59,899 nt of DNA from positions 1 through 59,899 of the forward strand of contig JACCVV010000023.1 of NCBI GenBank assembly GCA_013697955.1, in the 5' to 3' direction. This document shows positions 180-14,900 of the stretch, in pieces; the first letter of the stretch is position 1, and each line of letters opens with the position of its first letter. The notes under the pieces are model-generated. The model ran no database searches and was not told where the DNA came from. It was given only the letters and a program-made list of their open reading frames with translations. Position numbers and translations under genes: made by a program. Origin of the DNA: Tatlockia sp. GTDB taxonomy: Bacteria; Pseudomonadota; Gammaproteobacteria; Legionellales; Legionellaceae.

Positions 180-284
180 TTTCTTTACTTTTAATAAATA
201 GACTTTTGCTCTTCATACTATACTATAGTACTTATAACAATCGCACCCTAATACCTGAATTGCACCGTAAAAAAAGAGTAAAAA
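180..284. promoter_or_regulatory. Divergent icmV / icmW promoter region
   Basis: This 105-bp AT-rich spacer must hold the promoters of both icmV (minus) and icmWX (plus). For icmV, a candidate -35 TTGTTA (240-235 on the minus strand) is followed 17 nt later by TATGAA. No convincing hexamer pair is visible for icmW. Two GTAAA half-sites, at 267-271 and 278-282, sit just before the icmW start. Dot/Icm genes at this locus are known to respond to the response regulator CpxR, whose site is a GTAAA-type direct repeat. Here, however, the pair overlaps the icmW ribosome-binding region, so its role is uncertain. Confidence 0.45.
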
Positions 285-740
285 ATGCCCGATCTTAGTC
301 ATGCAGCCTCTTCACAATATTGGCACGAGTATGTTGATCCCATGATCTATCGCGTCATTACCTTTATGGAAAGTGTTGAAGATTGGACCCTCGATGGTAA
401 TCCTGAAATTGAAAGTGCAATCAATGAGCTCGGTAGAGAACTCGAAGACATCGAAAAAATAGATATGGGCTCCCTCTCTCAGGAAGATGTTTTTATTCGT
501 CTTGTTGGTAACATTAAATCGGGTCGTGGTTTACGTTTATTACAAGCAATTGATACCGTTCATCCTGGTTCCGCTTCGCGAATATTAATCCATGCCGAAG
601 AAAATAGTACAGGCAGTCATGATCCTGCCGGCTTTTTTCTTAAACGAAATATAGTTTTTGAACGCTTACGTTTGCTTGCCCGAGTTTTTTCTGAATATCG
701 CTTAAAACTTGTTGCTCGCGCTCTTGAAGGGGAAGAATGA
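285..740 (+). CDS. icmW: IcmW, Dot/Icm type IVB secretion chaperone/adaptor subunit
   Basis: This 151-residue acidic protein matches IcmW in length and in recognisable stretches: DPMIYRVITFMESVE near residues 18-32, SGRGLRLLQAIDTVHPGSAS near 80-98, and FFLKRNIVFERLRLL near 117-131. IcmW pairs with IcmS as a small cytoplasmic adaptor that brings a subset of effectors to the type IV coupling complex. The ATG lies just after an AAGAG stretch. The gene overlaps icmX by four bases (ATGA), so translation is probably coupled. It is divergent from icmV, the conserved arrangement in Legionella. Confidence 0.95.
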   Translation: MPDLSHAASSQYWHEYVDPMIYRVITFMESVEDWTLDGNPEIESAINELGRELEDIEKIDMGSLSQEDVFIRLVGNIKSGRGLRLLQAIDTVHPGSASRILIHAEENSTGSHDPAGFFLKRNIVFERLRLLARVFSEYRLKLVARALEGEE

Positions 741-2137
741 TGAAATTACTTGGCCGTTTTGCTTTATCCACCATACTAATTTTGAATGCATCGACAGGTT
801 TTACAGCTGCTGGAGGCGGAGGCGGGGGTTCTAGTGCCGGTGGTCAAGGCGGTGGTAGTATCTCCGATCTAATTAACTATTTTCTCAATTTTGGTTCTTA
901 CCTTGGCTATAATCTGCAAACTGATCCAACAAACTCAGGTAAGGAAAAAGTTTCGAATGAGTTACTTAATCCGACTCCTACTGAAGGAAATCAACAAAAA
1001 GTACCAACCATACAACTAATTAATAATCTTGTTTTTAATAATTATCTGGGTGGTAGTTTTATCGTCAATACTGTTCCTGCCATTGCACAAATTATTTCCG
1101 ATGCAGCAGGAGGCGGGTATCCAGATTATGTAAACCGTTTTGCATCTTATAGTTTTAATCCACAAGGTCTCCTAAGACAAGCGAGTTATGCTAATCAAAA
1201 TGGAACCGGCCCTTCTGTTTCTCCACTGATTGATCAACCTCCCTATCAATCCGATCCAGTTGCACAGCAACTTTTAAATATTTTGGGAACACCTGATTAC
1301 AGTTATTGCATGGATAATGCTGAGAAAAATTTTACCTGCGATTACAGTACAGCACCTTCCCGCGGCTCTAAAAGTTTAATGACAGAATATCAAGTAATGG
1401 CCAATATAATTGGAACACCGCTCCCGGGTACTGATGAATACTATTCAGCCAACCAGATTCAACCAGTCATAGGCGATTTAAATGCCAACTCTTTGATAAC
1501 TCCTATGATGTATTCGCCAAGTGGCTTCCAGCAGCAAAATAATCAAAACGCTTCAGGCGGCTTAAAAGCAAGTACTCAAATACAGCAAGCTGGCAACTTT
1601 ATCCGTTATGCAACGGGTGCAGTGGCGCCAATTGTTATGCCTGATCGCGCCCTTTATGATAAATGGGTAACTATTGCCAAACAACCAACCTCAGTCGTAC
1701 AACAACAAGCGCAAGCCGTTATAGCCACTTACCTAACTGCGTTAAGGGTTTATGCTGCTCAGGTTTCTGTGGGAGCTTCTAACTTATACTTTATTATGTC
1801 AAAACGCTTACCTCAGGGCGAAACTGGAAAAGCACAATCAAGTCAGGCTTTAAGTGAATTCACTATGGCCACCCGTCGTCTTTTTAATCCCAATCAAAGT
1901 CAAGAAGATACGCAATGGATTTCGCAAATTAATAAAGCATCTGCAGCCACTGTACAAAAAGAAATGGCCATTTTGCTTGCAGAAATTAACTATCAGCTTT
2001 ACCTCAATCGTCAACAAGAAGAGCGTATTTTGATGACAAACTCATTATTGTTACTTCAAAATGCAAAAGCATCTCAGCCGAATACCCAACTTAATCCACC
2101 CAGTACTGGTGTTCTGGGAACTCAAGGGAGCTTCTAA
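737..2137 (+). CDS. icmX: IcmX, exported Dot/Icm type IVB secretion protein
   Basis: This 466-residue protein has an N-terminal signal sequence (hydrophobic from about 4 to 24), a Gly/Ser-rich linker near 25-42, and a Gln/Asn-rich mature body. It sits directly downstream of icmW with a 4-bp overlap. Length, export signal and position identify IcmX, a periplasmic or secreted component needed for Dot/Icm function. It contains a CMDNAEKNFTC cysteine pair near 190-200. Two consecutive ATGs (737 and 740) are possible starts. The second has the better distance from the GGGGAAG ribosome-binding site, while the first gives the ATGA overlap. Confidence 0.93.
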   Translation: MMKLLGRFALSTILILNASTGFTAAGGGGGGSSAGGQGGGSISDLINYFLNFGSYLGYNLQTDPTNSGKEKVSNELLNPTPTEGNQQKVPTIQLINNLVFNNYLGGSFIVNTVPAIAQIISDAAGGGYPDYVNRFASYSFNPQGLLRQASYANQNGTGPSVSPLIDQPPYQSDPVAQQLLNILGTPDYSYCMDNAEKNFTCDYSTAPSRGSKSLMTEYQVMANIIGTPLPGTDEYYSANQIQPVIGDLNANSLITPMMYSPSGFQQQNNQNASGGLKASTQIQQAGNFIRYATGAVAPIVMPDRALYDKWVTIAKQPTSVVQQQAQAVIATYLTALRVYAAQVSVGASNLYFIMSKRLPQGETGKAQSSQALSEFTMATRRLFNPNQSQEDTQWISQINKASAATVQKEMAILLAEINYQLYLNRQQEERILMTNSLLLLQNAKASQPNTQLNPPSTGVLGTQGSF

Positions 2138-2193
2138 GACAGGCCTTTATCTTTAAGGCTTCTTTGAACAAAATTGATTAAGTTTCCAAGTGT

Positions 2194-2215
2194 CATCCCC
2201 GCTTAGACGGGGATG
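2194..2215. repeat. REP-like GC-rich palindrome (CATCCCCG / CGGGGATG)
   Basis: Perfect 8-bp arms CATCCCCG and CGGGGATG are separated by a 6-nt loop. They lie between the converging icmX and malic-enzyme genes. There is no T tract on either side, so a classic intrinsic terminator is unlikely. Sequences of the form GTCATCCCCGC...GCGGGGATG are common dispersed intergenic palindromes in many proteobacteria, so this is probably one copy of such an element. Confidence 0.6.
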
Positions 2216-2258
2216 CATCTAAATCTGGCTTTGATCTAAGCCCATTCGAAATTTTACC

Positions 2259-3968
2259 TCAACTCTCTTTTTTATAAGGAACATACTCCGGCTTCCAAAT
2301 TAGCTGTTTTATTCGGTTTTCGATTTCATCATCACTTAAATGCTCTGCCAACTTTGAATTCACTGCTTCCTTTGCAACAGCCAAGGCTACTTTATAAGAC
2401 ACCTCACGCACTTCGGTTAAAGGGGGTAATAAATTTGCCTTTGGATTGTTCTTTGCAGGAGAACAACTGGCCAGCGCTTTGGCAGCTGCCATAAACATCT
2501 TATCAGTTACTCGCTTGACCTTTAAAGCGATGAGCCCTAAACCGACTCCTGGAAAGATATAGACATTATTAGTTTGGTCTACACGAAATAACTTACCCTC
2601 TTTAATAATATTGCCAAAGGGACTACCCGTACCAATGACCGCACGATTATCAGTCCAATGCATGAGATCCGCCGGGGTCGCTTCAGAATGGGTTATTGGA
2701 TTGGAAAGCGGCATAATTATTGGCTGTTCTACGTGTGCAGCCATTTCTCGAATGATTTCTTCGGTGAATAACCCGGCTTTACCAGTAACGCCAAGCAAGG
2801 CATTAGGATGTAAATTTTGAACCACTTCTTTAAAACTAATACTTTCCTTATTTTGACATTTCCAGTTAGCCACTATTTTTTTAGATTTTAGAAATTTCTG
2901 TTGAAAAACTAATAAATCCTTCATGCCCTCAATCAATAAGCCATTGCGATCGACCATAAAAATCCGATCTCTTGCCTCTTGATCTGACAAACCATCTTCA
3001 ATCATCGCATGGACAATAAGTTCAGCAATTCCACAGCCTGCAGAACCAGCTCCCAGAATAACGATATATTGTTTAGACAAGCCTACTCCTGTCACTTGAA
3101 CTGCGGAAAATAGCGTACCAGTCGCAATTGCTGCGGTTCCTTGAATATCATCGTTAAAGGTACAAAGCTGGTCTTTGTAATTTTCCAATAAACGGGTAGC
3201 GTTTTGCAGGGCAAAATCTTCCCATTGCAGGAGAATATGAGGAAAGCGTTGTTTTAAAGCGTTTATAAATCTTTCAATAAATTCATCGTATTCTTTGGCA
3301 CGAACGCGTTCATGGCGCCAACCAATGTAAAGGGGATCACAGATTAATTCCGGATTATTCGTTCCGGTATCCAACAAAATCGGCAACGTATCTGCGGGGT
3401 AAATGCCAGCGCAAGCGCAATACAAAGCTAATTTGCCTATAGGAATTCCCATACCGCCAGCTCCCTGATCTCCGAGACCCAAGATGCGTTCGCCATCAGA
3501 AACCACGATAACCTTTACCTGATCAAAGCGAGGATGTGCCAAAATTTGTTCAATTCGCTCTCGATCAGGGTAAGAAATATATAAGCCTCGAGGACGACGA
3601 TAAATATGACTGAATTGCAAGCAGGCCTCACCAACGACAGGTGTATATACAATTGGCATTATTTCGGTGATATGTCCACAAAGTAAATTGTAATAAAGCG
3701 TTTCGTTAGAATCTTGCAAATCGCGTAAGTACATGTATTTTTCAAGATCAGTTCCTTTACTTTTAAATGCCTTATAGGAGCGAGCGCTTTGTTCCTTGAT
3801 ATTACTTTCCTCAGGGGGTAATAAACCAAACAAATTAAAGGTTTCGCGCTCATCTTGTGAAAAAGCAGTTCCCTTATTCAGGATTGGATTAGTAATTAGC
3901 TTAAAGTCGCTTACTTTCACTACCAAATAGGGTTTTCCCTTTTTATCCACGAGACGATTATAATCCAT
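2259..3968 (-). CDS. maeA: NAD-dependent malic enzyme (malate to pyruvate + CO2)
   Basis: The oxidative decarboxylation of malate is indicated by the full set of malic-enzyme signatures in a 569-residue protein: VYTPVVGEACLQFS with Tyr108, GLGDQGAGGMGIPIGK with the catalytic Lys179, the metal-binding WEDF (Glu250-Asp251) and FNDD (Asp273-Asp274), and a GAGSAG dinucleotide fold at 306-311. The length is that of the large NAD-linked class (maeA/sfcA). I place the start at the ATG at 3968, seven bases after GGAG. The longer frame begins at a TTG that is part of that ribosome-binding site. The gene is probably monocistronic and converges on icmX. Confidence 0.93.
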   Translation of the reverse strand: MDYNRLVDKKGKPYLVVKVSDFKLITNPILNKGTAFSQDERETFNLFGLLPPEESNIKEQSARSYKAFKSKGTDLEKYMYLRDLQDSNETLYYNLLCGHITEIMPIVYTPVVGEACLQFSHIYRRPRGLYISYPDRERIEQILAHPRFDQVKVIVVSDGERILGLGDQGAGGMGIPIGKLALYCACAGIYPADTLPILLDTGTNNPELICDPLYIGWRHERVRAKEYDEFIERFINALKQRFPHILLQWEDFALQNATRLLENYKDQLCTFNDDIQGTAAIATGTLFSAVQVTGVGLSKQYIVILGAGSAGCGIAELIVHAMIEDGLSDQEARDRIFMVDRNGLLIEGMKDLLVFQQKFLKSKKIVANWKCQNKESISFKEVVQNLHPNALLGVTGKAGLFTEEIIREMAAHVEQPIIMPLSNPITHSEATPADLMHWTDNRAVIGTGSPFGNIIKEGKLFRVDQTNNVYIFPGVGLGLIALKVKRVTDKMFMAAAKALASCSPAKNNPKANLLPPLTEVREVSYKVALAVAKEAVNSKLAEHLSDDEIENRIKQLIWKPEYVPYKKES

Positions 3969-4087
3969 CAAAATCTCCAATTTTAAATACTCTTAATTAT
4001 AGAGCTAATGTAGATTTTTGTATCAAAGAATGTGAACTGCCTCCAAGTCCTGATAAAGTCGAAAAAATAACTTAAATCTGAGCAACG

Positions 4088-4807
4088 ATGATAATAACCA
4101 AAGAAATTGATTATTCTGATGGCGAAATAATTTGCCGTGGATTTATGGCCTATGATAATGAACTGAAATTGCCTGTACCCGCTGTAATGGTAGCGCCAGA
4201 CTGGGGCGGTCGTGGTGAACAAGCCTGCGACAAAGTGATGCTGCTGGCCAAGAGGGGTTACGTTGGCTTTGCTATCGACATGTATGGGCAAGCAAAGCTT
4301 GGTAATAGCAAGGATGAAAAGCGCCAACTAATGACTCCTTTTAGACAAGATAGAGCGGCTTTGGTAAATCGTATGCTCGCTGCCTTTAATACCGTTGCGC
4401 GCTTGCCTGAGGTAAATCTTAATAAAATAGCGGCAATCGGTTATTGTTTTGGTGGATTATGTGTTTTGGATTTAGCCCGAGCTAATGTGGATATTAAAGG
4501 AGTAGTCAGCTTTCATGGCTTGCTTTCGGCAGCACCTGAGGCAATTTTTCATCCAATTAGATCAAAAATTCTAGTTTTGCATGGTTTCGATGATCCTTTA
4601 GTTCCCAAAGACGATTTGCTCGATTTTTCTAATGAAATGACAACAAGAAAGGCTGATTGGCAATTGCATATCTATGGATTAACTGCACATTCGTTTACCG
4701 ATCCCCAGGCTAATGATGATGAAATGGGCCTGCATTATAATAAAATTGCTGATTGCCGCTCCTGGCAATCTACTCTTCAGTTTTTAGAGGAAATTTTCAA
4801 CAGTTGA
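4088..4807 (+). CDS. Dienelactone-hydrolase-family alpha/beta hydrolase
   Basis: This 239-residue cytoplasmic enzyme has the catalytic triad expected of dienelactone hydrolases: Cys120 within GYCFGG (118-123), Asp169 in GFDDPLVP, and His201 in AHSF. An APDWGG segment near 36-41 corresponds to the family's early oxyanion region. The natural substrate cannot be read from the sequence; many such proteins are general carboxyl-ester hydrolases. It is the only plus-strand gene between icmX and the regulator at 36474. Its last 31 bases overlap the 3' end of the converging metal-hydrolase gene, an unusually long tail-to-tail overlap. Confidence 0.85.
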   Translation: MIITKEIDYSDGEIICRGFMAYDNELKLPVPAVMVAPDWGGRGEQACDKVMLLAKRGYVGFAIDMYGQAKLGNSKDEKRQLMTPFRQDRAALVNRMLAAFNTVARLPEVNLNKIAAIGYCFGGLCVLDLARANVDIKGVVSFHGLLSAAPEAIFHPIRSKILVLHGFDDPLVPKDDLLDFSNEMTTRKADWQLHIYGLTAHSFTDPQANDDEMGLHYNKIADCRSWQSTLQFLEEIFNS

Positions 4808-5640
4808 TAGGCATTTTTATGCATGAGTTCATCTTTACGTTGTTCTGATAGTTTAAATTCATCGAACCATTTTTTTGATTCGACAAGCCATTGAGAGATC
4901 TCTATTTGGCTTAATTGTCCTAAATCAGAACTATAAATAACGCGGGGCAAGCGGGTTAAAACCTCAACGAAATCGTCTTTTGTTTGATGTCCCAACAAAA
5001 AGGTAAGTGCTGTTTGTTCAATCCAAACAAACTCGTTTTCCGCGAGCTTTTTTAAATCCTTTGCCTCTAAACCGGTTAATGGATTTGCAGGTTGGTTTAA
5101 TAACAAACTTGGAACCTTATATTTTATGCATGCATCAATTAATGAAAACACTTCTTCTTTGCTGGCATGACCGGTCGAAAGAACAATTGGATATTCGCTA
5201 GCCATTTTTAAAATATCAATCACTTCTTTCCGTAAATCGTTTGATTTATTAAACAGGGTCTCCGGCTTAAGAGTTTGCTGACTTAAATGTTCAGCCGTTA
5301 ACTGCCTTGATAATTTGCTTTGATATTGTCGGCCAGTAATGGTGGGAAAGTCGACAATCATTTTTGCCGTATGCGCGGACTGATATTCTGCTAATCCTCT
5401 CATAATGACGCGATAATCAATCCCTCCAGCAATATGATTTAAAGCCAAAGAAGGAAAGACAGGCAGCCCCATACTTTGCGCAAGAGTTGCTTGCACCGTA
5501 GTTGCTCCCAAATGACTTTTTAAAACGACAGCGCCTTTAAGCCCCTGGTAACACCGCCCTGCTTCGATTGCATTTAAACGCCGCTTATAAAGATCAGGAT
5601 CCGCATGATAATGGATATCGATAAATTGATAATTTTCCAT
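4777..5640 (-). CDS. TIM-barrel metal-dependent hydrolase (DUF6282-like), last gene of six-gene cluster
   Basis: This 287-residue protein looks like an amidohydrolase-superfamily metal hydrolase. It has an N-terminal HYHAD (His10, His12), Lys41/His43 in KSHLGAT, His158 in STGHAS, and Asp239 in SSDLGQ, which are the spacings of metal ligands round a TIM barrel. I recall similar proteins under the label DUF6282, with no assigned reaction. It starts five bases after the RraA-like gene, with GAGGAT as ribosome-binding site, so it is the promoter-distal member of the six-gene minus-strand operon. The substrate is unknown; hydrolysis of an amide, lactone or cyclic imide would fit the fold. Confidence 0.75.
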   Translation of the reverse strand: MENYQFIDIHYHADPDLYKRRLNAIEAGRCYQGLKGAVVLKSHLGATTVQATLAQSMGLPVFPSLALNHIAGGIDYRVIMRGLAEYQSAHTAKMIVDFPTITGRQYQSKLSRQLTAEHLSQQTLKPETLFNKSNDLRKEVIDILKMASEYPIVLSTGHASKEEVFSLIDACIKYKVPSLLLNQPANPLTGLEAKDLKKLAENEFVWIEQTALTFLLGHQTKDDFVEVLTRLPRVIYSSDLGQLSQIEISQWLVESKKWFDEFKLSEQRKDELMHKNAYQLLKISSKN

Positions 5641-5644
5641 TTCG

Positions 5645-6298
5645 CTAATCCTCTATCCAGGGTTTGTCGTAGTGACAGTCTTTTCGAGCTTGGCTTAAAC
5701 TGGAACCTTTTTTAACCGCTGCAACAATTTTTTTTTCAGCGACCTTTATTCTTTCCGCTTTGCTTAACACCTCTTCGAGAAAATCCTTAGGAATAACTAA
5801 AGCGCCGTTGTCATCAGCAAAGATAATATCTCCCGGATTAATTACCACACCATTGATGGTTAACGGACAAAGCTCTCCCGATTTATAAACACGATTTTTA
5901 CCCGAGCGCATATACACTGCAGAGCAAAAAAGGGGATAGTTGGAAGCGCGAATGGATTCAACATCCCTGACTGCGCCATGTACCAGTGTACCTGCAATTT
6001 TTTTTTGCAAGGCGACATCCGTTAAAATATTGCCCCAGGTTGTGCAATCTGTACGACCCTTATTGTCAATAACGATGATAGCCTCTGAAGGTACCGAATC
6101 TATATAATCAGCCGCGCCTTGAAAATGCTCTGGTTTCTCTTCATACAGAGAATATTCAATGGTGTAAGCGGACCCAATGAGTTTAGTTCCTGCTTTAATC
6201 GCTTTTATATTTAACAAGGCACCTTCAATTGAGCAGGCATCCAAAGCGTCGGAAACTTCTGCTGTGCTTAATTTTTCTAGTCTTTGGTTAAATTTCAT
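5645..6298 (-). CDS. RraA-like protein (HMG/oxaloacetate aldolase-decarboxylase family)
   Basis: This 217-residue protein belongs to the RraA / 4-hydroxy-4-methyl-2-oxoglutarate aldolase family. It has the conserved WGNIL loop near 88-92 and GAVRDVE with the substrate/metal residues Arg111 and Asp112, followed by the typical INPGD-type segment near 154-160. Family members are divalent-metal aldolases or oxaloacetate decarboxylases acting on short keto-diacids; some only bind RNase E. The pathway context favours an enzyme here. I use the ATG at 6298, which overlaps the upstream dehydrogenase gene by 11 bases. A longer frame to 6319 would overlap further and has no better ribosome-binding site. 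Confidence 0.8.
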   Translation of the reverse strand: MKFNQRLEKLSTAEVSDALDACSIEGALLNIKAIKAGTKLIGSAYTIEYSLYEEKPEHFQGAADYIDSVPSEAIIVIDNKGRTDCTTWGNILTDVALQKKIAGTLVHGAVRDVESIRASNYPLFCSAVYMRSGKNRVYKSGELCPLTINGVVINPGDIIFADDNGALVIPKDFLEEVLSKAERIKVAEKKIVAAVKKGSSLSQARKDCHYDKPWIED

Positions 6299-7400
6299 CT
6301 TTCTTACCCTTTGATTCAACCGCTTGAAGTATAGCTGCAGCCATTGCTTCAGTTGAAGCCCTGCCCCCCAGATCGTAGGTCAGTGATTTTTTTTCTTGTA
6401 AGACTTTTCTAAGTGCTTCCTGGATGAGGTGAGCTTCCTTTGAATAGCCAAAATGAGTTAGTAATAATGCAATAGTTAAAAACATTGCACCAGGATTGGC
6501 ATGATTTTCTTGAATTTTTGGAGCACTTCCGTGTACGGGTTCAAAATAGCAACCCTTTTCACCGATGTTTGCACTCGGAGCCAAACCAAGTCCACCCATA
6601 ATACCTGCGCCCACATCGGATAAAATATCCCCAAACATGTTCTCGGCAACAATAATGCCAAAATCCGCTGGACGCCTTATCAGCCATAACGCCACAGCAT
6701 CAACGTTTAGGATGTCAGCTTTAATAGCTGGATAACGGCTCGCAACCTCTTCAAAAATTTCCCGTGCAAAAGCGCCGCTTTGTCTTAAAACATTAGGCTT
6801 ATCTGCTAAAGTAACCCTTTGCAAATTTTGTTTTTCAGCATATCGAAAGGCAAATTCAAACAATCGCAACAGTCCTTTTTTTGACTGTAACCGCAAGCTA
6901 CAGCTTATTTCTTTAGCATCCAGATTCTTCCAGAGAGGATTTTGAGCAAGCAAAGTTTTCAATTCTCTGGGAATTGGATGGAAATCAAATCCGGCATACA
7001 GGCCTTCTGTATTTTCCCTAATCACTGCAAAATGAAAATCGCTACCTTCTTTTTTAATGTTAAAGCAAGGTCTGACATTTGCGAATAAATCAAGCTGCTG
7101 TCTTAATTGCAGGATGGGTGAAATGTAAGCTGGTTGGTTTTCTTGAAAGGCGACTCCTAATTCGGCCATGGCTTCCCGCTTTGGCTTGCTCGTAGTTGCT
7201 CCGAGTAAAACCGTATCGCTTTCTCTAATAAGTTGCCAGGTTCTTTCAGGGATTGGGTTTCCTTCGTTTTGCCAGAAAGTCCAGCCAATGTCGCCGAACG
7301 TTAATTTTACTGGGATTTTTAATTTTTCAAAGATTGGAATTGCTGCTTTGGTGACCTCAACACCAATGCCGTCTCCTGGTAAAACCGCGATTTTTATCAA
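6288..7400 (-). CDS. Isocitrate/isopropylmalate-type beta-decarboxylating dehydrogenase
   Basis: This 370-residue member of the NAD(P)-dependent isopropylmalate/isocitrate/tartrate dehydrogenase family begins with LPGDGIGVEV. It carries the IRENTEGLYAG substrate loop, a VDA segment with the metal aspartate, and NMFGDILSD followed by the GGLGLAPSANIG nucleotide-binding region. These enzymes oxidise a 2-hydroxy-acid bearing a 3-carboxylate and lose CO2. The exact substrate is not evident, and the surroundings (no leuA/C/D) argue against leucine synthesis. I choose a TTG start at 7400: GGAG lies 7 nt upstream, and the TTGA shares bases with the preceding stop. The longer frame to 7442 also starts with TTG but lacks these signs. 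Confidence 0.82.
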   Translation of the reverse strand: MIKIAVLPGDGIGVEVTKAAIPIFEKLKIPVKLTFGDIGWTFWQNEGNPIPERTWQLIRESDTVLLGATTSKPKREAMAELGVAFQENQPAYISPILQLRQQLDLFANVRPCFNIKKEGSDFHFAVIRENTEGLYAGFDFHPIPRELKTLLAQNPLWKNLDAKEISCSLRLQSKKGLLRLFEFAFRYAEKQNLQRVTLADKPNVLRQSGAFAREIFEEVASRYPAIKADILNVDAVALWLIRRPADFGIIVAENMFGDILSDVGAGIMGGLGLAPSANIGEKGCYFEPVHGSAPKIQENHANPGAMFLTIALLLTHFGYSKEAHLIQEALRKVLQEKKSLTYDLGGRASTEAMAAAILQAVESKGKKDEI

Positions 7401-8098
7401 AGGGTTTCGCTCCCTAAATAGTCTAAAATAATTTTTTGGCAAAAAGCCGGATTATCCTGCAAAACTCGCATACCCGCCCCTGGGACTATCACTAAGCGTC
7501 CCTTATGAGGGTTTAACACATTTTTTGTATTGACCAAATTTGAACATTCACCCACTAAATGTAGATAGTTTAAGGTCGATTCTCTTAAAATTCTGCTTGA
7601 ATCACTTGCCAGGACACGTTCCAAACCAAAGATCAGGCGCGAGGCTATAAGTTCCTTCTTTAGAGGATTCAACGATTGTTTTGGGGCCTGATAGGGTGAG
7701 AAAACATCGCTATAAAGTTGTTCAAGCGCTGTTAGTAATTCATTCTCCTTACAAAAACGAATGACTTGACCCAGCTTTTTAGCTAAATCCTCATCAGCAA
7801 AGGTTGGGGTTGAAAATAGTACAATAGGTTTGGCATGGTTTAGGAAAAGATCAAAACATTGTTCTAAAATAACGCCCCCAAAAGAAAAGCCAAAAAATAC
7901 ATCGTAATTTTCCAAGTACTTTTTTAATACATTTTTCCAAAGATCATAATAGCTTTCATTAGAAACCTCAGCCTGAATTGAAAGCGGATCTATAAAATCA
8001 ATTTGGTAATCTCTACGAAGGAAGGTCAGGGTTGAAGCAATTGCTTCAATATCGGTCGCAAGCGGCATGACGGGTCCGAGGACTATTATTTTTTTCAT
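7397..8098 (-). CDS. Alpha/beta-hydrolase-like protein of six-gene cluster
   Basis: This 233-residue protein resembles a small alpha/beta hydrolase. A first strand KKIIVLGP is followed by the nucleophile elbow GFSFGG with Ser72, strands IVLFST and RLVIVPGAG, and a His near 187 in a position suitable for the triad. No close family is recognised. It may be a thioesterase or carboxyl-ester hydrolase serving the cluster. It begins seven bases after the aldolase gene with a GAGAG ribosome-binding site, and its TGA stop is interlocked with the TTG start of the dehydrogenase. Translation is therefore likely coupled. The function is inferred from fold motifs only. Confidence 0.65.
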   Translation of the reverse strand: MKKIIVLGPVMPLATDIEAIASTLTFLRRDYQIDFIDPLSIQAEVSNESYYDLWKNVLKKYLENYDVFFGFSFGGVILEQCFDLFLNHAKPIVLFSTPTFADEDLAKKLGQVIRFCKENELLTALEQLYSDVFSPYQAPKQSLNPLKKELIASRLIFGLERVLASDSSRILRESTLNYLHLVGECSNLVNTKNVLNPHKGRLVIVPGAGMRVLQDNPAFCQKIILDYLGSETL

Positions 8099-8105
8099 AC
8101 TCTCT

Positions 8106-8993
8106 CTAGGCTAAATTTGATTTATAGATTTTGAGATCAGCCGTTGAAAGATCGGTAATCCCTCTGATGAATTCATCCATCTCAATATCTTCCTGCCCTA
8201 TGCCTAAATTAGAGCGTACATAATTTGCTGCTGTTAAAATATGGGAAAGTCCATATTTTTTTACATGAATCGCATGTAGATAAGCAGCAAAAAATTCGGT
8301 TTTGAGATTTCCTATACCCTTTCCCATGCCAGCCAGGGAAACGTCAATAAATTGCACACCATTCTTCAATGCAGTTAAAGCGTTAGCCTGAGCTAAGCCC
8401 AAATTATCGTGAGCATGAAATCCAAAGGGAATCGCATAAAGTTCAGTGAACTTGCTATAGATTGCCTCAATTCTAGCTGGCAACATTGAACCATTTGAAT
8501 CAGCGAAATAAATAATATCGGGATTATGTTGCGTTATCGCACTCATTACCTCATCCAGCTCACTTTCCTTATAATAGGACATATGAATAAAATTGACAGA
8601 AGTTGCTAGGCCAATGTCCTTTGCCATTGCTATTATTGGAAAGGCCGATTCTGTTTCTCCTTTTGCAATGCAAATGCGTAATAAACCAACACCACATTCT
8701 TTGAGTTCTGCAAGATCAGCTTTAGTCACATTTTTAGGATGAACCATTACTGCAATTTTGGCTTTTTTAATTAAGGATTGACAGAATAAAAGGTAATCTT
8801 TTTCACAAAGACCTGCTTTACCTAAATTATCTATAGAATGTAAAGAACCATTGCGATATCCGATTTCTATATATTCCAGGCCAGAATTATCAAGCGGCGT
8901 TAAGATACCTTCTAAATCTCGATTCTGAAAGTGAAAATTGCTGCGATGACCGCCATCGCGAAGTGAAACATCTAAAACCTGAATTGTATTCAT
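8106..8993 (-). CDS. DRE-TIM metallolyase (HMG-CoA lyase / 4-hydroxy-2-oxovalerate aldolase-like)
   Basis: This 295-residue protein carries the defining DRE-TIM signature DVSLRDGGHRS (8-18, with Arg12-Asp13) and the metal ligands His193 and His195 in GFHAHDNLG. It most resembles DmpG-type 4-hydroxy-2-ketovalerate aldolases, although the normal C-terminal communication domain that binds the acylating aldehyde dehydrogenase seems reduced and no such dehydrogenase is encoded nearby. Members of this superfamily either cleave or form C-C bonds next to a keto acid. It is followed after 7 bases by the hydrolase gene and preceded by the ATP-grasp gene 27 bases upstream, so it is part of one operon. 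Confidence 0.8.
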   Translation of the reverse strand: MNTIQVLDVSLRDGGHRSNFHFQNRDLEGILTPLDNSGLEYIEIGYRNGSLHSIDNLGKAGLCEKDYLLFCQSLIKKAKIAVMVHPKNVTKADLAELKECGVGLLRICIAKGETESAFPIIAMAKDIGLATSVNFIHMSYYKESELDEVMSAITQHNPDIIYFADSNGSMLPARIEAIYSKFTELYAIPFGFHAHDNLGLAQANALTALKNGVQFIDVSLAGMGKGIGNLKTEFFAAYLHAIHVKKYGLSHILTAANYVRSNLGIGQEDIEMDEFIRGITDLSTADLKIYKSNLA

Positions 8994-9020
8994 AAGCTAA
9001 ACCACGTTTACGTTCTAATC

Positions 9021-10097
9021 TCAATGTACTACCAGCTTATACAACAGACCCATCAAAATTACAAAAATTAAGCTTCTCGCATAAAAATAAGTCTTTCTAT
9101 TAGTATAGAGTACAGCCAGGTAAGACAGAGGATGTCGATAAATAAGGCTGCGAATTATCTTCTTTGTAACCGGATTTGCAAGACCCGCCATGGGAATTTC
9201 ATGAATTTTTACACTAGGGCAATCATTTGCTTCGATAATAACGCCGGCAGTGGATTCAATTGGAAGGTTTATGTCTTCACATTCCACATCAAAGCCCACA
9301 AGATTCAAATCCAATACCTGGGCTGCGCGTATCATTAATCTTCTATTTTCTGCACAAATTTGTTTACTTAAGGAAACAAACGAACCGCCGCGAGAGGCGT
9401 TTGAAGTGTACCCCAGGAGAACTTGCTCACCTTCGCGAGGAATAGAACCCAGGCTCAGATTCAATTCATCAAGCCTTATTTGACACTCCACATCGACGAC
9501 TATTTTCCCTAGTGCGTCATTTAGTTTTTTACGTTTCTGATTCGTAGTTTGAATTAGTTGTTCTATAGTTTGAGCGTCATCACCAATGACAAAGGCTGGA
9601 AAACGTTCAATTACTCCAATAACCTGACGATTAAACACAAGGACCCTAAAGGATCTTAAATTAGCGTGAAATTCTTCGAGTATTAATAATTCATATTTTA
9701 AAAATAACTCTTGTAGAAGTTTTTCCAAAAGCGTTATTGTTTTGATATTGCATAAAACATCAGAGCCTTTACCACCATCAAGAGGCTTTATTACTAGAGG
9801 AAAACGGCAGCCTTGAAGACGTTCCTTGAGCTTTCCTGCTTCAAACTCCGATTTGGAAATTCCAGTTAATTTGGGTACTGGAATAGAAGCCTGAGCAAGG
9901 ACTTTATTAGTGCAGTATTTGTTTATGGCAATTTTAGCACTACAAGAGTTGTTGAATGGTGTTTCTCCTCCACGAAAATAGTAGAGATTTTTACCTAGTT
10001 GGAAGGTAAATGCTTCAATGTCTTCAATGCGATTAACAGGTAATAGCAACTGTAAAGCACTTTTGTAGTAAAGCTCTGCGTTCTTATCGATGACCAA
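9021..10097 (-). CDS. ATP-grasp ligase, cyanophycin-synthetase/RimK-like, with C-terminal membrane helix
   Basis: The 358-residue protein has the order of an ATP-grasp ligase. FPLVIKPLDGGKGSDV (about 115-130) holds the ATP-binding Lys, and ELLILEEFH is the adenine-contacting strand. GDDAQTIEQLI is typical of the cyanophycin-synthetase/glutathione-synthetase group. SNASRGGS follows, and a final FDVE / IEANDCPS pair supplies metal ligands. Such enzymes join a carboxylate to an amine via an acyl-phosphate. A hydrophobic stretch near 340-357 could anchor it in the inner membrane, which is odd for the family. The only upstream start is TTG at 10097, with GGGGA very close to it. It is the first gene of the six-gene cluster. 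Confidence 0.78.
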   Translation of the reverse strand: MVIDKNAELYYKSALQLLLPVNRIEDIEAFTFQLGKNLYYFRGGETPFNNSCSAKIAINKYCTNKVLAQASIPVPKLTGISKSEFEAGKLKERLQGCRFPLVIKPLDGGKGSDVLCNIKTITLLEKLLQELFLKYELLILEEFHANLRSFRVLVFNRQVIGVIERFPAFVIGDDAQTIEQLIQTTNQKRKKLNDALGKIVVDVECQIRLDELNLSLGSIPREGEQVLLGYTSNASRGGSFVSLSKQICAENRRLMIRAAQVLDLNLVGFDVECEDINLPIESTAGVIIEANDCPSVKIHEIPMAGLANPVTKKIIRSLIYRHPLSYLAVLYTNRKTYFYARSLIFVILMGLLYKLVVH

Positions 10098-10111
10098 ATC
10101 CCCAAACGTCT

Positions 10112-10145
10112 CGAGTGTGTTAGATTTGAAATCCTAACACACTCG
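10112..10145. terminator. Long perfect hairpin between the Thr-rich gene and the six-gene operon
   Basis: Arms CGAGTGTGTTAG (10112-10123) and CTAACACACTCG (10134-10145) pair perfectly over 12 bp. The loop itself contains a short dyad (ATTT / AAAT). It lies just after the Thr/Ser-rich protein gene and only 14 bases before the TTG of the ATP-grasp gene. On the minus strand it is followed by GAGACGTTTGGGG rather than a run of T, so it is a weak terminator at best. It could instead stabilise the upstream mRNA or attenuate readthrough. Confidence 0.7.
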
Positions 10146-10162
10146 ATGAGATAAGATCTTTA

Positions 10163-10999
10163 TTACTGGGTTGTTTTAGGTGTATGCGTTTGTGATGGAG
10201 TTTGAGTGGGTTTAACCATCTCAGCGCAAGTACCTGCTATGGTATCAACTTGAGATTTTAAGTCGTTATCTACCATGGTTTTATGATTTTTGATCACTTC
10301 CGACAACTTAGGTTGTGCGCATGAACAAAAGGATGTGGTATTGGTCTTGGCCTGTTCGGACATTTGGGGATAAATGAGTTTCCATTTGTCGAGACAAGAT
10401 TGACTCACATCTTGGTCAGTCGCTTTATCGAAACCTACGCCAGTTTTCAGGGTATCCATTGAATCTTGTAATAAAGTTCGAGACATACAGACCTGGATTG
10501 CCTTATCAACAGCAGCATCAGTATCTAAAGGTTGGGTCAAAGCGCATGCACAATATTTTTGACCGAAACTTTGATAGGCTGATTTATTTTGGACATCACC
10601 AAATCGTTTCATCCATGATGAAAGGCAAATAGTTTCAAAGGATTCACCGGATTTGGCATCAGTTGTGGTTGTAGTAGTAGAGCTGGCTGGAGTTGTTGTA
10701 GTGCTTGCTGGAGTTGTGGTTGTTGAACTGGCTGGAGTGGTCGTAGTACTTGCTGGATCAGTTGAGATGGTTGTTCCAGTTGTTCCAGTTGTTCCAGTTG
10801 TTCCAGTATCCATTGTATTAGTAGTGCTGGTCGATGTGGTACCTGAGGTGCCGGTATCACTAATTCCAGTAGGTGTACTTGTGGGTGATGTAGTTGTTGT
10901 TGGGGAGTTAGTTGTGGTTGATTGAGTAGCATTTGCTATAAAGGGACAAAAACTAACTAGTAAAGTTGCTATAATAATTTTTGGGCGATAAAAACTCAT
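10163..10999 (-). CDS. Exported Thr/Ser/Pro-rich protein with duplicated Cys domain
   Basis: Function unknown. The 278-residue product has a signal peptide ending near ANA (about residues 1-24) and a very low-complexity Thr/Ser/Pro/Gly stretch to about residue 115, including four GTT tripeptides and repeated TTTTPAS units. A C-terminal domain then occurs twice: a Cys-Leu start, about 25-30 residues, a CACA or CSCA motif, then a further Cys. The paired cysteines suggest disulfide-bonded repeats in the periplasm or outside the cell, on a flexible stalk. I take the ATG at 10999, nine bases after GGAGGA; the frame could extend to 11026 without support. A short Thr/Pro/Gln tail ends the protein. 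Confidence 0.75.
   Translation of the reverse strand: MSFYRPKIIIATLLVSFCPFIANATQSTTTNSPTTTTSPTSTPTGISDTGTSGTTSTSTTNTMDTGTTGTTGTTGTTISTDPASTTTTPASSTTTTPASTTTTPASSTTTTTTDAKSGESFETICLSSWMKRFGDVQNKSAYQSFGQKYCACALTQPLDTDAAVDKAIQVCMSRTLLQDSMDTLKTGVGFDKATDQDVSQSCLDKWKLIYPQMSEQAKTNTTSFCSCAQPKLSEVIKNHKTMVDNDLKSQVDTIAGTCAEMVKPTQTPSQTHTPKTTQ
10771..10806. repeat. Four exact 9-bp tandem repeats (TTGTTCCAG) inside the Thr-rich gene
   Basis: Four uninterrupted copies of TTGTTCCAG lie in the coding region. On the minus strand they encode the Gly-Thr-Thr repeats. Because the unit is a multiple of three, copy-number change would lengthen or shorten the stalk without breaking the frame. Imperfect GCTGGAGTTGT-type repeats lie just before it, at about 10682-10756. 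Confidence 0.85.
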
Positions 11000-11130
11000 A
11001 ACTTGGATCCTCCGTTGAATTTGCAAGCAATATCCTTTCTACAGAATTTATCATAGCCCAAAGAAATAGATTTAGCGAATTTGCATTGAGCAAACAAAGA
11101 GCTAAATTTTTGATTCGAATTGCTAACTAT

Positions 11131-11838
11131 TTAGGCTGATCGCAACATTTTTAATTGAGCATTTAATGCGCCATAAGCAGCTTCTATATTGATATAGTTC
11201 TTTTTTGAATAATAATAGGATAAAGAACCATCATTTTGGGCCTTATGTGATTGTAAAGCGACGTTATATTTGAGTCTTTTAAGGCGGCTAAACTCTTGCC
11301 CTTTGGTCACAAAATAAAAGTTTCTGAGGCTGGTATGGGGTTGATAAGCCAAGGCTTTAGAATCCGCAGCTAGGTGATGCGTTGGAAAATATTCTTTGAG
11401 TGAATAATTTTTATTGTTATGAACGGCCACTATTTTTCCTGGCGGGATTAAGCATAAAATTTCTTTAGCCAGTTTTTTTACCTCAAAGAATGCGCTTTGC
11501 GAATAGTGACCATATTTATGCAGGGTTTTTTTAATTCCTTGGCTTGTAAAAATTCGATTAGGATCAAACTCATAACGCACTCCATCTAAAAAAAACACGA
11601 TATTGCGTTTGCCTGAATGTTTCAAAGTGATTAAGGTACCGCCTTTTTTCAGTATATAAAGTCTGGCAGCAGCCAACGCTGTGGTCTCATTTTCGTGGAC
11701 ATGAACAAAGGTTTTGCCTTTACCATTGGTTTTTATGATTTGAACCAGGGTAGAACCTAATTTAACGGTATGAACCTCGGTGCACATTTTAGTGTTGAGA
11801 AAAAAATACAAATAAATAAGAAAGTTCATAAATTTCAT
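11131..11838 (-). CDS. Putative exported protein, possibly M14/AstE-like zinc hydrolase
   Basis: Function not firmly recognised. The 235-residue product begins with a short hydrophobic segment (about 4-16) that may be an export signal. HVHENETTALAAARLYI (about 46-62) resembles the HxxE zinc site of M14-type carboxypeptidase/deacylase folds. AVHNNKNYSLKEYF (about 139-152) could supply the second histidine. A strongly patterned middle segment, YEFDPNRIFTSQGI, looks like a family signature. Zinc chemistry is my inference from these spacings, not a proven assignment. It stands alone on the minus strand between the Thr-rich gene and the RCC1 gene; the ATG at 11838 follows a GGAATGA. Confidence 0.5.
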   Translation of the reverse strand: MKFMNFLIYLYFFLNTKMCTEVHTVKLGSTLVQIIKTNGKGKTFVHVHENETTALAAARLYILKKGGTLITLKHSGKRNIVFFLDGVRYEFDPNRIFTSQGIKKTLHKYGHYSQSAFFEVKKLAKEILCLIPPGKIVAVHNNKNYSLKEYFPTHHLAADSKALAYQPHTSLRNFYFVTKGQEFSRLKRLKYNVALQSHKAQNDGSLSYYYSKKNYINIEAAYGALNAQLKMLRSA

Positions 11839-11916
11839 TCATTCCATAGATTGAGCAAGTATTATACACTTTTTAATCTTCTTCACACAAGATATATTAA
11901 ATTAGCTGATAAAAGC

Positions 11917-14900
11917 CTACATAATACGGCACTCATTATCTTGATATTCATTGGCTTGCGCCTCATAAACCGCTGCGAGATCGCAGTCATAATATTCAGT
12001 TGCTTGTTGCAATTCTAAATAAGAGCTTTTGGTTATCAACCTTAAATCTGAATTGTATTTCTGTAAAACGGCGAGTCCTTCCTGATAAATTTCGAGGCAT
12101 TTTTTTGAACTATTCCAATCAGGCTTGTAATTTACCTTAGATTTAACAAACTGCAACTCAAAAAGAGATTCGGTAACTGACTTTATTCCTTTATTTTTCA
12201 AGCAACGTGATAAAACACCTGCCAGATAAAAGGCTGCATTTACTTTTCGAAAAAGTGGGTCTTCAGGGCTGTCGCACGGTATTTCAGGATTTTTCAGCAT
12301 TGCAAAATCTTTTGATTCAACTGTTTCAGTATTTAAATAATGACGTTCCTGCCCGTAATAGACCACCCTTGGCTCATTGTCTATTAAGATGGCATTGGCT
12401 ATCTCATCTTCTTTAGCAATAGCCCGGCTAATGTCTTTCTTGTGAACATCGGTCTGACTAACAAGGCTATATTCCTCAAATTGTTTATTATTAAGATGAA
12501 TTCTTGAAGTAGAGCAATCATCACGTGAACACATAATTGTGTTTATAGCTTCCGATAAATAACGAGTTTTTCCTAAAACTTCTATCAAAAATTCTTTAAT
12601 AAAGGCTATATTTCGATTTACATGGCCTGCGCTAAAAAAGGCAACTTCAAATTTATCTTTGTGTTCAAACTCATAAAGCATTAATTCCGCATATCCTGGA
12701 GGTATATAATGACTGATTCCATAAGCATTGATTATTAGGCCTTTTTTCAAAAAAAATAGAGCAGTTTCTGAATCGCAGGAATCATGAGTTGCAAGAACGT
12801 TATCGATATCCCAAACGGTGGTTATTCGCTTAAGGTTTTGCAAATGCCATTTTTTTTGCAGAGGTTCTAAAAGGTTTCTGGAACTTTGGCTGTTAATAGT
12901 TAACTGCTCATATTCCCCATGAAAAATTACATTTAAAAGACCAAGTTCAATAAGGCAGTTTATGAGTTTATTTGTTTCTGTTTTATGCTTGATAACAGTT
13001 TTGCCATCCAAGATAATTCCAAGTAGCTCAGAATCTTCAGAATTCACTTTTAACTCTTGAATAAAATGTTTTTCACAAAGGTGGATTTCACTGCCTTTGC
13101 TTACTAAGAATGGCCTGTATTTTGAACTATAATCAAGCAACTCATGTTTACGCTTATGGGCGTGACCGAAGGTTGAAGGATGAACACCCATTAAAATAGT
13201 TTGTGAAACATAGGGATTTTCTCCCTCTTTTAGAAAATCACCTATTGCAGGATCTAAGTAATTTTTTAATAGATCGACAAATTTATCATCATATAACGGA
13301 TGAATAGAGCCAGTGTTTATGAGAAATTTAACCTTATTATCCTTTTGGAAATAAAGAAATTTCAATAAATTGACTAGTGCATCTTGAGGCAAACTTTCAA
13401 GGGATTGAGTCGCAATATCTTGATAATTTTTTTTACTTTCTTCCTTGTCGGATAAATAACCTGTAAAAAGAGAAGTTCTGTGAATCAAATACAAATCCGC
13501 TACAACTTGTTTGAAGTTTGAACGAAAAACACTTTCCGAACTTAAATCTAATTGACTTAAATCCAGATAGATTACTGGGCTTTGTCCTTGCTTTTTAGCA
13601 ATCTCTTTAAAATTCCAGATTTTTTTATCATATAAATAAACTTGCTCTTGCAAACAATTATCTGAATAAAAACAATACAACATTGAAAAAATGTCCGCCA
13701 AATTAAAATTTAAAGGTCGATTAATTTCGATAATTCCTCCTTCATCTTCCTCAAAACGAGCAATAATCTCTGTGTTATCCAGGTATTCGGGTCTTATACT
13801 CTGTTCAAGAAAAAGCCTTTCAGGCTTAGCTATTTTGGAAAGGGGCATCTTTAGAAAATTTGAATTGACCGGAAATGCTAACTGCTCCAGCGCTACCCTA
13901 TTAGGATGAAGATAAGTTTGCTTGATCTCCAAGCCTAATTGAAAATAATTATTAGACCCTAAGCCATAATAAAAATTATCAGTGCCTATGAAGGTTGTTT
14001 CGCTTCCTGCATAAACTGAGTTCGGTTTTACATTTTGTGGCATTTCAATTTTTTGAAAACAAGAGTAGCCCTCTTTATCCTGTTCAAGCTTTCGGAAAAA
14101 ACCGCCAGCTTCCCATATCTCGTCTTTCTCAGAAATAACTATAAGATGTTCATGACTAAAACTAAGATTCTTCGGCGTTAAATCCTCTGGCAACTTTATG
14201 CGTCTGCAACTGTAGTCAACAGGTAGTTTAATAAAATTTCTTCCATAGAAATAACAACCATTTTCCTGCGAGAACACAAAAACAGCCTCTTTTCCAATGC
14301 AAAGAGTCCGAGGCTTTAAGGCTTCAATCGTTTTTAACCTTAAAGGAACCCTTTGAGAAAAATTTTTAAAATTACCTGGTGATTCGCCTAATTCTCTAGA
14401 ACCATTCTCGCCAAATCCATAATACTCACCTTGCTCACAAGCAATAATGGTTCGGTTAGAGCTAGTAAAAATTTGCAAGGGAACTTCATTATTTGGTAAA
14501 GATATAGGCTTTGGGAATTCAATGATTTTATCATTTCCACAACCAAGTTGCCCTTCGACATTAGATCCAAAGCCATATAGGGTTCCCTTGTTGCTTATAA
14601 TCAAAGAATGATTTCCAGCGGCGGCTATTTGAATAGGAATTTCTTCGTTTGGTAAAAGGATAGTAACTGTTTTTGAATGGTGATTATCAAAAATACCAAT
14701 ACCTAATTGGCCATATCTTCCGCAGCCATATCCTTCCAACAAACCATTCTCATATAAAATTAAAACATGACGATCACCAGCGGCAACTTGTTTTACAAGA
14801 ACCTCAGATCGCAAAGGAATTGACCAAGGTTTGTTTGTGTTTTCTCCATAGCAATAAGGATCCTTATAAAACGGATTATTACCAAGACCCAGTAATATTT

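What the first reader, a model, noticed from the sequence alone, without database searches (positions are those of the whole stretch)
4777..10097. Six-gene operon with an ATP-grasp ligase and keto-acid enzymes: an unassigned pathway
Seen: six minus-strand genes with gaps or overlaps of at most 27 bases, including a TTGA start/stop interlock. Families: cyanophycin-synthetase-like ATP-grasp, DRE-TIM aldolase/lyase, alpha/beta hydrolase, isopropylmalate/isocitrate-type dehydrogenase, RraA-like aldolase, DUF6282-like metal hydrolase. Known: each family acts on small keto- or hydroxy-acids or joins carboxylates to amines. Inference: together they could extend or trim a keto-diacid and ligate the product to an amine. 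No leu, dmp or cyanophycin partner is present, so I cannot match it to a described pathway.
Basis: partly seen in the sequence, partly recalled or inferred. Interest (0 to 1): 0.85.

Follow-up and report, generated by a model that had tools for sequence, protein, structure and literature searches.

The report
Unassigned keto-acid pathway in Legionella
A compact set of enzyme genes that probably makes or breaks down an unknown small organic acid recurs as a block in Legionella, Pseudomonas, Bartonella and more distant bacteria, and in many Legionella it sits beside or inside the genes of the Dot/Icm secretion machine.

Summary
The six-gene operon is real. Five genes form a conserved core: HMGL-type aldolase, alpha/beta-hydrolase-fold protein, isopropylmalate/isocitrate-type dehydrogenase, RraA-type aldolase/decarboxylase and DUF6282. 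All but the hydrolase-fold gene occur together in 36 of 41 named loci found with DUF6282, 14 of them outside Legionellaceae. Dehydrogenase and RraA are one protein in 24 of 37 Legionellaceae carriers; RraA-DUF6282 and dehydrogenase-MoCF fusions occur elsewhere. The ATP-grasp ligase is a Legionella add-on: 0 of 14 outside loci. A second dienelactone hydrolase copy tracks the operon: 36 of 37 carriers, 1 of 106 others. The hydrolase-fold protein lacks a conserved nucleophile and histidine.

In the window the operon lies 2.6 kb from icmX; in a second genus it lies between dotB and dotA in 15 of 16 carriers. The aldolase alone persists in 26 genomes, by at least five changes on the tree.

Most likely it makes or remodels a small hydroxy/keto-acid. 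Substrate, product and direction are unproven. Ten searches of an open-licence paper library found no description.

The parts
9021..10097 (-). ATP-grasp carboxylate-amine ligase (cyanophycin-synthetase/RimK-like middle domain only) with a predicted C-terminal membrane helix; a Legionella-type addition, not part of the core
   Evidence: hydrophobic C-terminus in 18 of 21 rows, one of the other three being an unrelated ATP-grasp; absent from 14 of 14 non-Legionellaceae loci
8106..8993 (-). HMGL-like (DRE-TIM) aldolase, relative of 4-hydroxy-2-oxovalerate aldolase without its C-terminal domain; core gene, and the one kept where the rest is missing
   Evidence: RD and HxH invariant in 31 rows; stand-alone copies
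7397..8098 (-). alpha/beta-hydrolase-fold protein, probably not a classical Ser hydrolase; core gene
6288..7400 (-). Isopropylmalate/isocitrate-type beta-decarboxylating dehydrogenase, own subfamily; core gene; fused to RraA in 24 of 37 carriers
5645..6298 (-). RraA-family aldolase/decarboxylase with the R-D pair of HMG/CHA aldolase and a family motif MxSxKNR; core gene
4777..5640 (-). DUF6282 protein, predicted metal-dependent hydrolase (HxH, His43, His158, Asp239 invariant in 35 rows); core gene
   Evidence: within the family found only in genomes with the dehydrogenase
4088..4807 (+). Dienelactone hydrolase-family gene, convergent, overlaps DUF6282 by 31 nt; extra copy that tracks the operon in Legionellaceae
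10111..10146 (-). Perfect 13-nt inverted repeat (10-nt spacer) just upstream of the first gene: terminator of the upstream gene or operator/leader hairpin
   Evidence: z = -4.1; not among the terminator-like sites
285..740 (+). icmW (Dot/Icm region I), genomic context of the operon
737..2137 (+). icmX (Dot/Icm region I), genomic context; match 473.5 bits, just under the curated cut-off of 500

Best explanation
The operon is the Legionella version of a horizontally spread five-enzyme module that makes or remodels a small hydroxy/keto-carboxylic acid. Shown here: the five genes travel as a unit, the dehydrogenase and RraA are fused in many carriers, and the metal-site and catalytic residues of the aldolases and the dehydrogenase are kept. 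Inferred steps: (1) the HMGL-type enzyme makes or breaks a C-C bond at a 4-hydroxy-2-oxo acid, using a pyruvate-type enolate. (2) The dehydrogenase oxidises and decarboxylates a 3-substituted malate-like acid to a 2-oxo acid. (3) RraA, often physically joined to it, takes that 2-oxo acid and decarboxylates it or splits or joins it by aldol chemistry. (4) DUF6282, and in Legionella the dienelactone hydrolase, open, close or hydrolyse a lactone- or amide-like intermediate. (5) The alpha/beta-fold protein helps without Ser-hydrolase chemistry. Direction: slightly more likely biosynthetic, with a secreted product, because Bcr/CflA-like MFS transporters (name recalled) and tailoring oxidoreductases accompany the core in several lineages and the module is patchy. 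In Legionella the membrane-anchored ATP-grasp enzyme then probably joins the acid to an amine.
For: Unit: four core genes in 36 of 41 loci and all five in 34. The 5 exceptions: two with DUF6282 moved elsewhere, two cut at a contig start, one truncated beside a transposase-like ORF. DUF6282 is in 35 of 37 dehydrogenase carriers and 0 of 106 other Legionellaceae. Fusions. Residues; R-D of RraA against HMG/CHA aldolase 3NOJ, R-D and HxH of HMGL against 1NVM. RraA chemistry precedent: HMG/CHA aldolase and oxaloacetate decarboxylase (PMC5065237, passages) and a dehydratase/decarboxylase (PMC8563752, passages). Biosynthetic hint: related MFS genes, 36-45% identical between lineages, beside Bartonella, one Pseudomonas, Kistimonas and a gammaproteobacterial MAG copy; luciferase-like monooxygenase, flavin reductase, ABM and FabK-like genes in most Pseudomonas and the Serratia cluster; a LuxC-like and a weakly LuxE-like gene upstream in Pseudoalteromonas; 10 of 298 Pseudomonas genomes carry it.
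Against: No committed biosynthetic enzyme and no transporter lies in the Legionella operon. Every core family also occurs in catabolism, and LysR regulators accompany most Pseudomonas copies. The HMGL protein persists alone in 26 genomes, so it need not act only in this pathway. The alpha/beta protein is missing in 2 of 36 loci (L155, L164). Two of the MFS cases (Kistimonas L168, gammaproteobacterial MAG L167) hold only a piece of DUF6282, and the MFS genes near the Rhodospirillales and GM50 copies are not close relatives of the others.
Confidence: 0.42

Rival explanations
1. Catabolic route: a lactone- or ring-derived hydroxy-diacid is hydrolysed (DLH, DUF6282), oxidatively decarboxylated (dehydrogenase) and split by RraA/HMGL to pyruvate plus an aldehyde or keto acid, in the manner of the lower protocatechuate 4,5-cleavage pathway.
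For: Family chemistry; RraA ends aromatic catabolism in known pathways (PMC5065237 passages; PMC12673573 passages). A LysR gene lies beside most Pseudomonas copies; luciferase-like monooxygenase plus flavin reductase could open a ring. The DLH copy tracks the operon in Legionella.
Against: The MFS genes beside several copies resemble drug exporters (family name recalled; Pfam says mainly MFS_1). LuxC-like and ATP-grasp genes are anabolic in style. No dedicated uptake gene lies in the Legionella operon.
Confidence: 0.33
2. Metabolite repair or detoxification: the enzymes remove a harmful by-product keto- or hydroxy-acid, and HMGL alone can do the most needed part, which is why it is kept where the rest is missing.
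For: HMGL alone in 26 of 143 genomes with at least 5 changes on the tree and pairwise dN/dS of 0.07-0.14. Patchy distribution.
Against: Five to nine genes is large for a repair system, and lineage-specific tailoring genes are unexpected. The stand-alone HMGL may have taken another role.
Confidence: 0.12
3. The reader's six-gene pathway with the ATP-grasp ligation as the defining last step.
For: An ATP-grasp gene of this type precedes HMGL in 33 of 37 Legionellaceae carriers (in G078 at 2.8 kb, with other genes between), and every carrier has at least one family member somewhere.
Against: Absent from all 14 non-Legionellaceae loci and from the operon of G004, G007 and G021; one further carrier (G108) is cut by a contig end. 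12 of 106 genomes without the dehydrogenase also have it. It forms its own tandem arrays.
Confidence: 0.1
4. Passenger of a genomic hot spot in the Dot/Icm region without a consistent function.
For: Lies between dotB and dotA or near dotA in many species and is often missing.
Against: The same module is conserved away from dot genes in other carriers of the family and in other phyla; fusions and near-perfect co-occurrence suggest selection for the set.
Confidence: 0.03

Closest known systems
RraA-type HMG/CHA aldolase (LigK, PDB 3NOJ) and the uncharacterised RraA-like structure 3K4I
   Same: Same family; the catalytic R-D pair aligns. 3K4I shares the MxSxKNR stretch and the C-terminal YDxPW end and is the nearest solved protein (E = 1.3e-54). 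A Pseudomonas origin for 3K4I is recalled, not from a call.
   Different: 62 bits against a cut-off of 304.5 for LigK. Here it is coupled or fused to a dehydrogenase or to DUF6282.
Isopropylmalate / homoisocitrate / tartrate dehydrogenases
   Same: Dehydrogenase fold and catalytic motifs; best NCBIfam match is methanogen homoisocitrate dehydrogenase AksF2.
   Different: All curated cut-offs missed by a wide margin (295 against 540 bits for AksF2). Fused to RraA or to a MoCF domain in other carriers. No aconitase-type partner in the operon or the two genes on either side.
DmpG/BphI 4-hydroxy-2-oxovalerate aldolase
   Same: DRE-TIM barrel, R-D and HxH metal site.
   Different: 154 against 286 bits. 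No C-terminal DmpF-contact domain and no aldehyde dehydrogenase partner in the operon; the position of DmpG His21 (number recalled) varies (H, Y or N). Closer to the unassigned structure 3DXI.
Cyanophycin synthetase / RimK ATP-grasp ligases
   Same: ATP-grasp domain, 202 bits to TIGR02068 over its middle part.
   Different: Curated cut-off 850; no Mur-like half; a C-terminal membrane helix instead.
Polycarboxylate siderophore clusters (baumannoferrin)
   Same: A gene list in PMC10483418 (one passage) names bfnG an RraA family protein beside siderophore biosynthesis proteins and an efflux MFS: a precedent for RraA in a biosynthetic cluster.
   Different: No IucA/IucC-type synthetase and no TonB receptor among the six Legionella genes.

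Membership tests
Cyanophycin synthetase | Full-length curated match (TIGR02068, cut-off 850 bits, 862 positions) | tested here: not met
   202 bits, positions 165-491 only
4-hydroxy-2-oxovalerate aldolase (DmpG type) | Curated match TIGR03217 (cut-off 286) and C-terminal domain | tested here: not met
   154 bits, match ends at profile position 256 of 334
4-hydroxy-2-oxovalerate aldolase (DmpG type) | Metal site and catalytic Arg-Asp | tested here: met
   R12-D13 and H193/H195 align with 1NVM and are invariant in 31 rows
Leucine/homocitrate-type 2-oxo acid elongation | Claisen synthase of the LeuA/NifV/LysS group | tested here: not met
   Best such score 74 bits, NifV cut-off 463
Leucine/homocitrate-type 2-oxo acid elongation | Aconitase-type isomerase (LeuC/LeuD) with the set | tested here: not met
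   None among the six genes or the two genes on either side; unlinked copies not searched
Isopropylmalate/isocitrate dehydrogenase superfamily | Iso_dh domain and catalytic residues | tested here: met
   Pfam 266 bits; R100, R110, R128, Y135, K201, D234, D258, D262 invariant in 32 rows (assignment to catalysis recalled)
HMG/CHA aldolase (LigK) | Arg-Asp pair needed for metal binding and catalysis | tested here: met
   R111-D112 aligns with 3NOJ and is invariant in 32 rows
HMG/CHA aldolase (LigK) | Curated match TIGR02798 (cut-off 304.5) | tested here: not met
   62 bits
Serine alpha/beta hydrolase | Ser/Cys/Asp nucleophile at the elbow and a catalytic His | tested here: not met
   Ser in the window but Ala in all 9 non-Legionella rows and in L141 and L142; no His among the invariant columns
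Amidohydrolase-like metal hydrolase (for DUF6282) | HxH plus further His and Asp metal ligands | tested here: inconclusive
   H10xH12, H43, H158, D239 invariant in 35 rows; no homologous structure found by sequence; fold prediction unavailable
Known anti-phage defence | PADLOC match | tested here: not met
   0 matches for 7 proteins at E 0.001

The most novel reading that the evidence does not exclude
A new class of small acid (in Legionella an amine conjugate made at the membrane by the anchored ATP-grasp enzyme) is produced by this module and serves life inside host cells. Its cassette was built into Dot/Icm region I, between dotB and dotA, so that it is inherited or expressed together with the secretion machine, and the aldolase keeps a role of its own when the rest is shed.
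Probability: 0.12. Interest if true: 0.88.

Novelty: new variant of a known kind. Interest (0 to 1): 0.6.

Why it matters
It turns a chance-looking set of six genes into a defined, cross-phylum gene module with fusions that suggest which enzymes work next to each other. DUF6282 and the alpha/beta protein, for neither of which I found a function, thereby get a pathway in which to be tested. The Pseudomonas copies offer a safe system, and 3K4I is already a solved structure of an RraA with the same signature. The position between dotB and dotA, and the repeated survival of the aldolase alone, raise a testable question about metabolism linked to the Dot/Icm region.

Tried and rejected
Cyanophycin-like or leucine-like assignment: rejected on curated cut-offs. 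Defence system: rejected. Mobile-element context: one plasmid record (L. adelaidensis, NZ_LR134433.1) holds the dehydrogenase; the genome search contig of the same length also carries dotA and dotB, so it is probably not an ordinary plasmid; not pursued. I first read the ~600-aa frames as alpha/beta-protein plus dehydrogenase; one search showed they are dehydrogenase plus RraA. I first set a DLH cut by E-value that separates the 37 carriers, but the list shows no gap there (1.3e-86 for G096, then 1.1e-85 for G065), so I now rest on copy number. Other DUF6282 proteins of the phylum (nine loci, 22-28% identical where they matched) showed none of the core partners at E 1e-4 and were set aside. 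Rfam on window 1-15500: nothing at gathering score. Promoter/terminator scan: no more sites than shuffles. Paper searches: DUF6282 in 0 papers; some searches listed 1, 1, 0, 0, 2, 1 and 4 papers, none about the cluster as far as listings and abstract starts show; two searches gave RraA and Legionella context papers. I read passages only of PMC5065237, PMC8563752, PMC2922099, PMC10483418 and PMC12673573, no whole text. The library holds open-licence papers only, so 'not in print' is not shown. Rows dropped: broken or cut loci (L136, L161, L163, L165, L167, L168, L170), rows with an internal stop and rows under 80% length were left out of the residue counts; the broken G021 locus (L049) and rows under 200 aa were left out of the tree; the pair L035-L033 gave no dS.
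Full report
What is there. Six minus-strand genes fill 4777-10097 without room for anything else: gaps of 27, 7 and 4 bp and overlaps of 4 and 11 nt. In order: ATP-grasp, HMGL-like aldolase, an alpha/beta-hydrolase-fold protein, an isopropylmalate/isocitrate-type dehydrogenase, an RraA-family protein and DUF6282. A convergent dienelactone hydrolase (DLH) gene (4088-4807, +) overlaps the end of DUF6282 by 31 nt. Beyond it come a malic enzyme gene (2259-3980, -) and, at the start of the window, icmX and icmW of the Dot/Icm secretion system (the icmX match, 473.5 bits, is just under its cut-off of 500). A perfect 13-nt inverted repeat lies at 10111-10146, just upstream of the first gene.

It is a unit in Legionellaceae. 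Of 143 family genomes, 37 have the dehydrogenase at E 1e-60 or better. DUF6282 is in 35 of these 37 and in 0 of the other 106 (Fisher p = 2e-31, not corrected for kinship). In two genomes (G096, G107) DUF6282 has moved elsewhere but is still kept. All six genes are adjacent in 28 of 37 (one search finds 25 fetched loci plus the window with the best-scoring ATP-grasp copy, and L107 and L119 are added because a nearer copy lies beside HMGL). The exceptions are G004, G007 and G021 (no ATP-grasp in the operon), G108 (contig edge), G078 (ATP-grasp 2.8 kb away), G086 and G133 (no DUF6282), and G096 and G107 (DUF6282 moved). The five core genes are adjacent and unbroken in 32 of 37; G021 has all five but is frame-broken in HMGL and the alpha/beta gene. 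A second DLH gene (at E 1e-40 or better) is present in 36 of the 37 carriers and in 1 of the other 106, G139 (G034 has one copy). The operon-linked copy lies next to the operon in most carriers, on either side, and up to about 10 kb away in a few (G135).

It is wider than Legionella. A scan of the named GTDB genome collection with a DUF6282 alignment gave 41 loci. HMGL, dehydrogenase, RraA and DUF6282 occur together in 36 of 41, with the alpha/beta gene in 34 (a gene counts if 60 residues or more align). The five exceptions are L148 and L149 (the two displaced DUF6282 genes), L167 and L170 (cut at a contig start) and L168 (a truncated DUF6282 downstream of a transposase-like ORF; my reading of the sequence). 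Fourteen of the 36 are outside Legionellaceae: three Pseudomonas, Serratia marcescens, Pseudoalteromonas, Pseudosulfitobacter, a Rhodospirillales MAG, five Bartonella, Prauserella and a Micrococcales MAG. Four of the Bartonella loci are visibly frame-broken or fragmentary, and in the fifth (L159) HMGL is split. In the genus of G272, which is Pseudomonas sp. GM50 by identity of L120 and L151, the dehydrogenase subfamily is in 10 of 298 genomes; all 8 further loci that I fetched have the five core genes, and one carrier (G587) was not fetched.

Fusions suggest who works with whom. Dehydrogenase and RraA form one frame in 24 of 37 Legionellaceae carriers. RraA and DUF6282 form one frame in Pseudosulfitobacter (L156). 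The dehydrogenase carries a C-terminal MoCF/CinA-like domain in Pseudoalteromonas, Bartonella L159 and the Micrococcales MAG, and also in one Pseudomonas (L181, 719-aa frame). The Rhodospirillales copy has only a weak, sub-cut-off match there.

What varies. ATP-grasp is in no outside locus (0 of 14) and DLH in none. Most Pseudomonas copies and the Serratia copy add luciferase-like monooxygenase, flavin reductase, ABM and FabK-like genes, not all in every copy, and L181 has none of them. Prauserella shares the last two. Pseudoalteromonas has an Aldedh/LuxC-like and a weakly (sub-cut-off) LuxE-like gene upstream. MFS transporters 36-45% identical to each other stand beside Bartonella (L159), one Pseudomonas (L181), Kistimonas (L168) and gammaproteobacterial (L167) copies. 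They look Bcr/CflA-like, a name that is recalled. The Rhodospirillales and GM50 MFS genes are not close to these. In Legionella the ATP-grasp family has paralogues and tandem arrays, and 18 of 21 rows end in a hydrophobic helix (L137 among the misses is an unrelated ATP-grasp).

Chemistry. The dehydrogenase keeps its catalytic motifs in all 32 rows. The RraA Arg-Asp pair aligns with HMG/CHA aldolase 3NOJ, where changing Arg123 to Lys cuts kcat 181-fold (PMC5065237, passages). RraA-family enzymes also act as oxaloacetate decarboxylase (same paper) and as a dehydratase/decarboxylase of a 2-keto-3-deoxy sugar acid (PMC8563752, passages). HMGL keeps Arg-Asp and HxH but lacks the C-terminal domain of DmpG. 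DUF6282 has invariant HxH, His43, His158 and Asp239, which suggests a metal hydrolase; no solved relative was found. The alpha/beta protein has Ala in place of the nucleophile Ser in all 9 outside rows and in L141 and L142, and no invariant His, so it is probably not a Ser hydrolase. All this points to a small hydroxy/keto-acid with a lactone- or amide-like form. Substrate and direction are inference.

Position in the Dot/Icm region. In genus g26 (which by contig identity holds L. moravica and L. quateirensis), 15 of 16 operon carriers have the operon between dotB and dotA; the sixteenth is split over contigs. In g1, the window contig begins with icmW-icmX, 2.6 kb from the operon, and five others (G005, G006, G012, G014, G015) have dotA about 4-12 kb away. 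In the remaining carriers the link is looser or not seen: 17 kb in G116, far off on the same contig or on another contig in others, and no dotA or dotB match in G018. So the link is lineage-specific.

The aldolase that stays behind. HMGL (E 1e-50 or better) is in 63 of 143 genomes, 26 of them without the dehydrogenase. On a tree of 71 rows the 'alone' label needs 5 changes, and 5 are forced by well-supported branches; the program warns of long branches, some of them in these groups. All nine outgroup rows come from clusters, so loss of the rest is the likelier direction. Nine pairs of stand-alone genes give dN/dS of 0.07-0.14, so the gene is under purifying selection, somewhat weaker than in five operon pairs at 0.06-0.08. 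In all 19 g26 genomes of this kind the lone gene is still between dotB and dotA. In G013 it is beside the malic enzyme gene. In six g1 genomes it stands beside a dps-like gene (name by my reading). This speaks for a function of HMGL outside the pathway and is the strongest point against a purely dedicated module.

Verdict. Biosynthesis is slightly favoured over catabolism. No described system matched in ten searches of an open-licence library, which is not proof of novelty.

Noticed in passing
L095-L110 and L189-L207 (g26 genomes), window 285-2137: The operon or its lone aldolase occupies the dotB-dotA interval of the Dot/Icm locus in 34 of 35 g26 genomes that have either; the window contig starts with icmW-icmX.
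   Followed up: yes
L191:4020-5360 and equivalents: A ~447-aa protein without any Pfam match lies between the lone aldolase and dotA; relatives found in 16 of the 17 loci of the largest stand-alone clade.
   Followed up: partly
L097:12740-15693, L107:397-6462: Tandem ATP-grasp paralogues with a methyltransferase-like gene, and in L107 a 5'-nucleotidase-like gene, upstream of the operon; G000 itself has further ATP-grasp paralogues on contigs C73 and C2.
   Followed up: partly
window 10111-10146: Perfect 13-nt inverted repeat upstream of the operon (folding z = -4.1); conservation in relatives not checked.
   Followed up: partly
window 11917-15027: 1036-aa protein with RCC1 repeats and a weak AAA-ATPase-like match, eukaryote-like.
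   Followed up: no
window 10163-11026 and 11131-11838: Two genes without Pfam or NCBIfam match upstream of the operon, the first rich in Thr/Ser; by eye, relatives of both precede the remnant aldolase in G013 (L035).
   Followed up: no
L159, L161, L163, L165, L169: Bartonella copies of the module are partly frame-broken, suggesting decay there or assembly errors.
   Followed up: no
NZ_LR134433.1 / G116 contig C24 (365,419 bp): A record listed as a mobilizable Legionella adelaidensis plasmid carries the dehydrogenase with an RraA gene; a genome search contig of the same length has the operon and also dotA and dotB, so the plasmid label is doubtful.
   Followed up: partly
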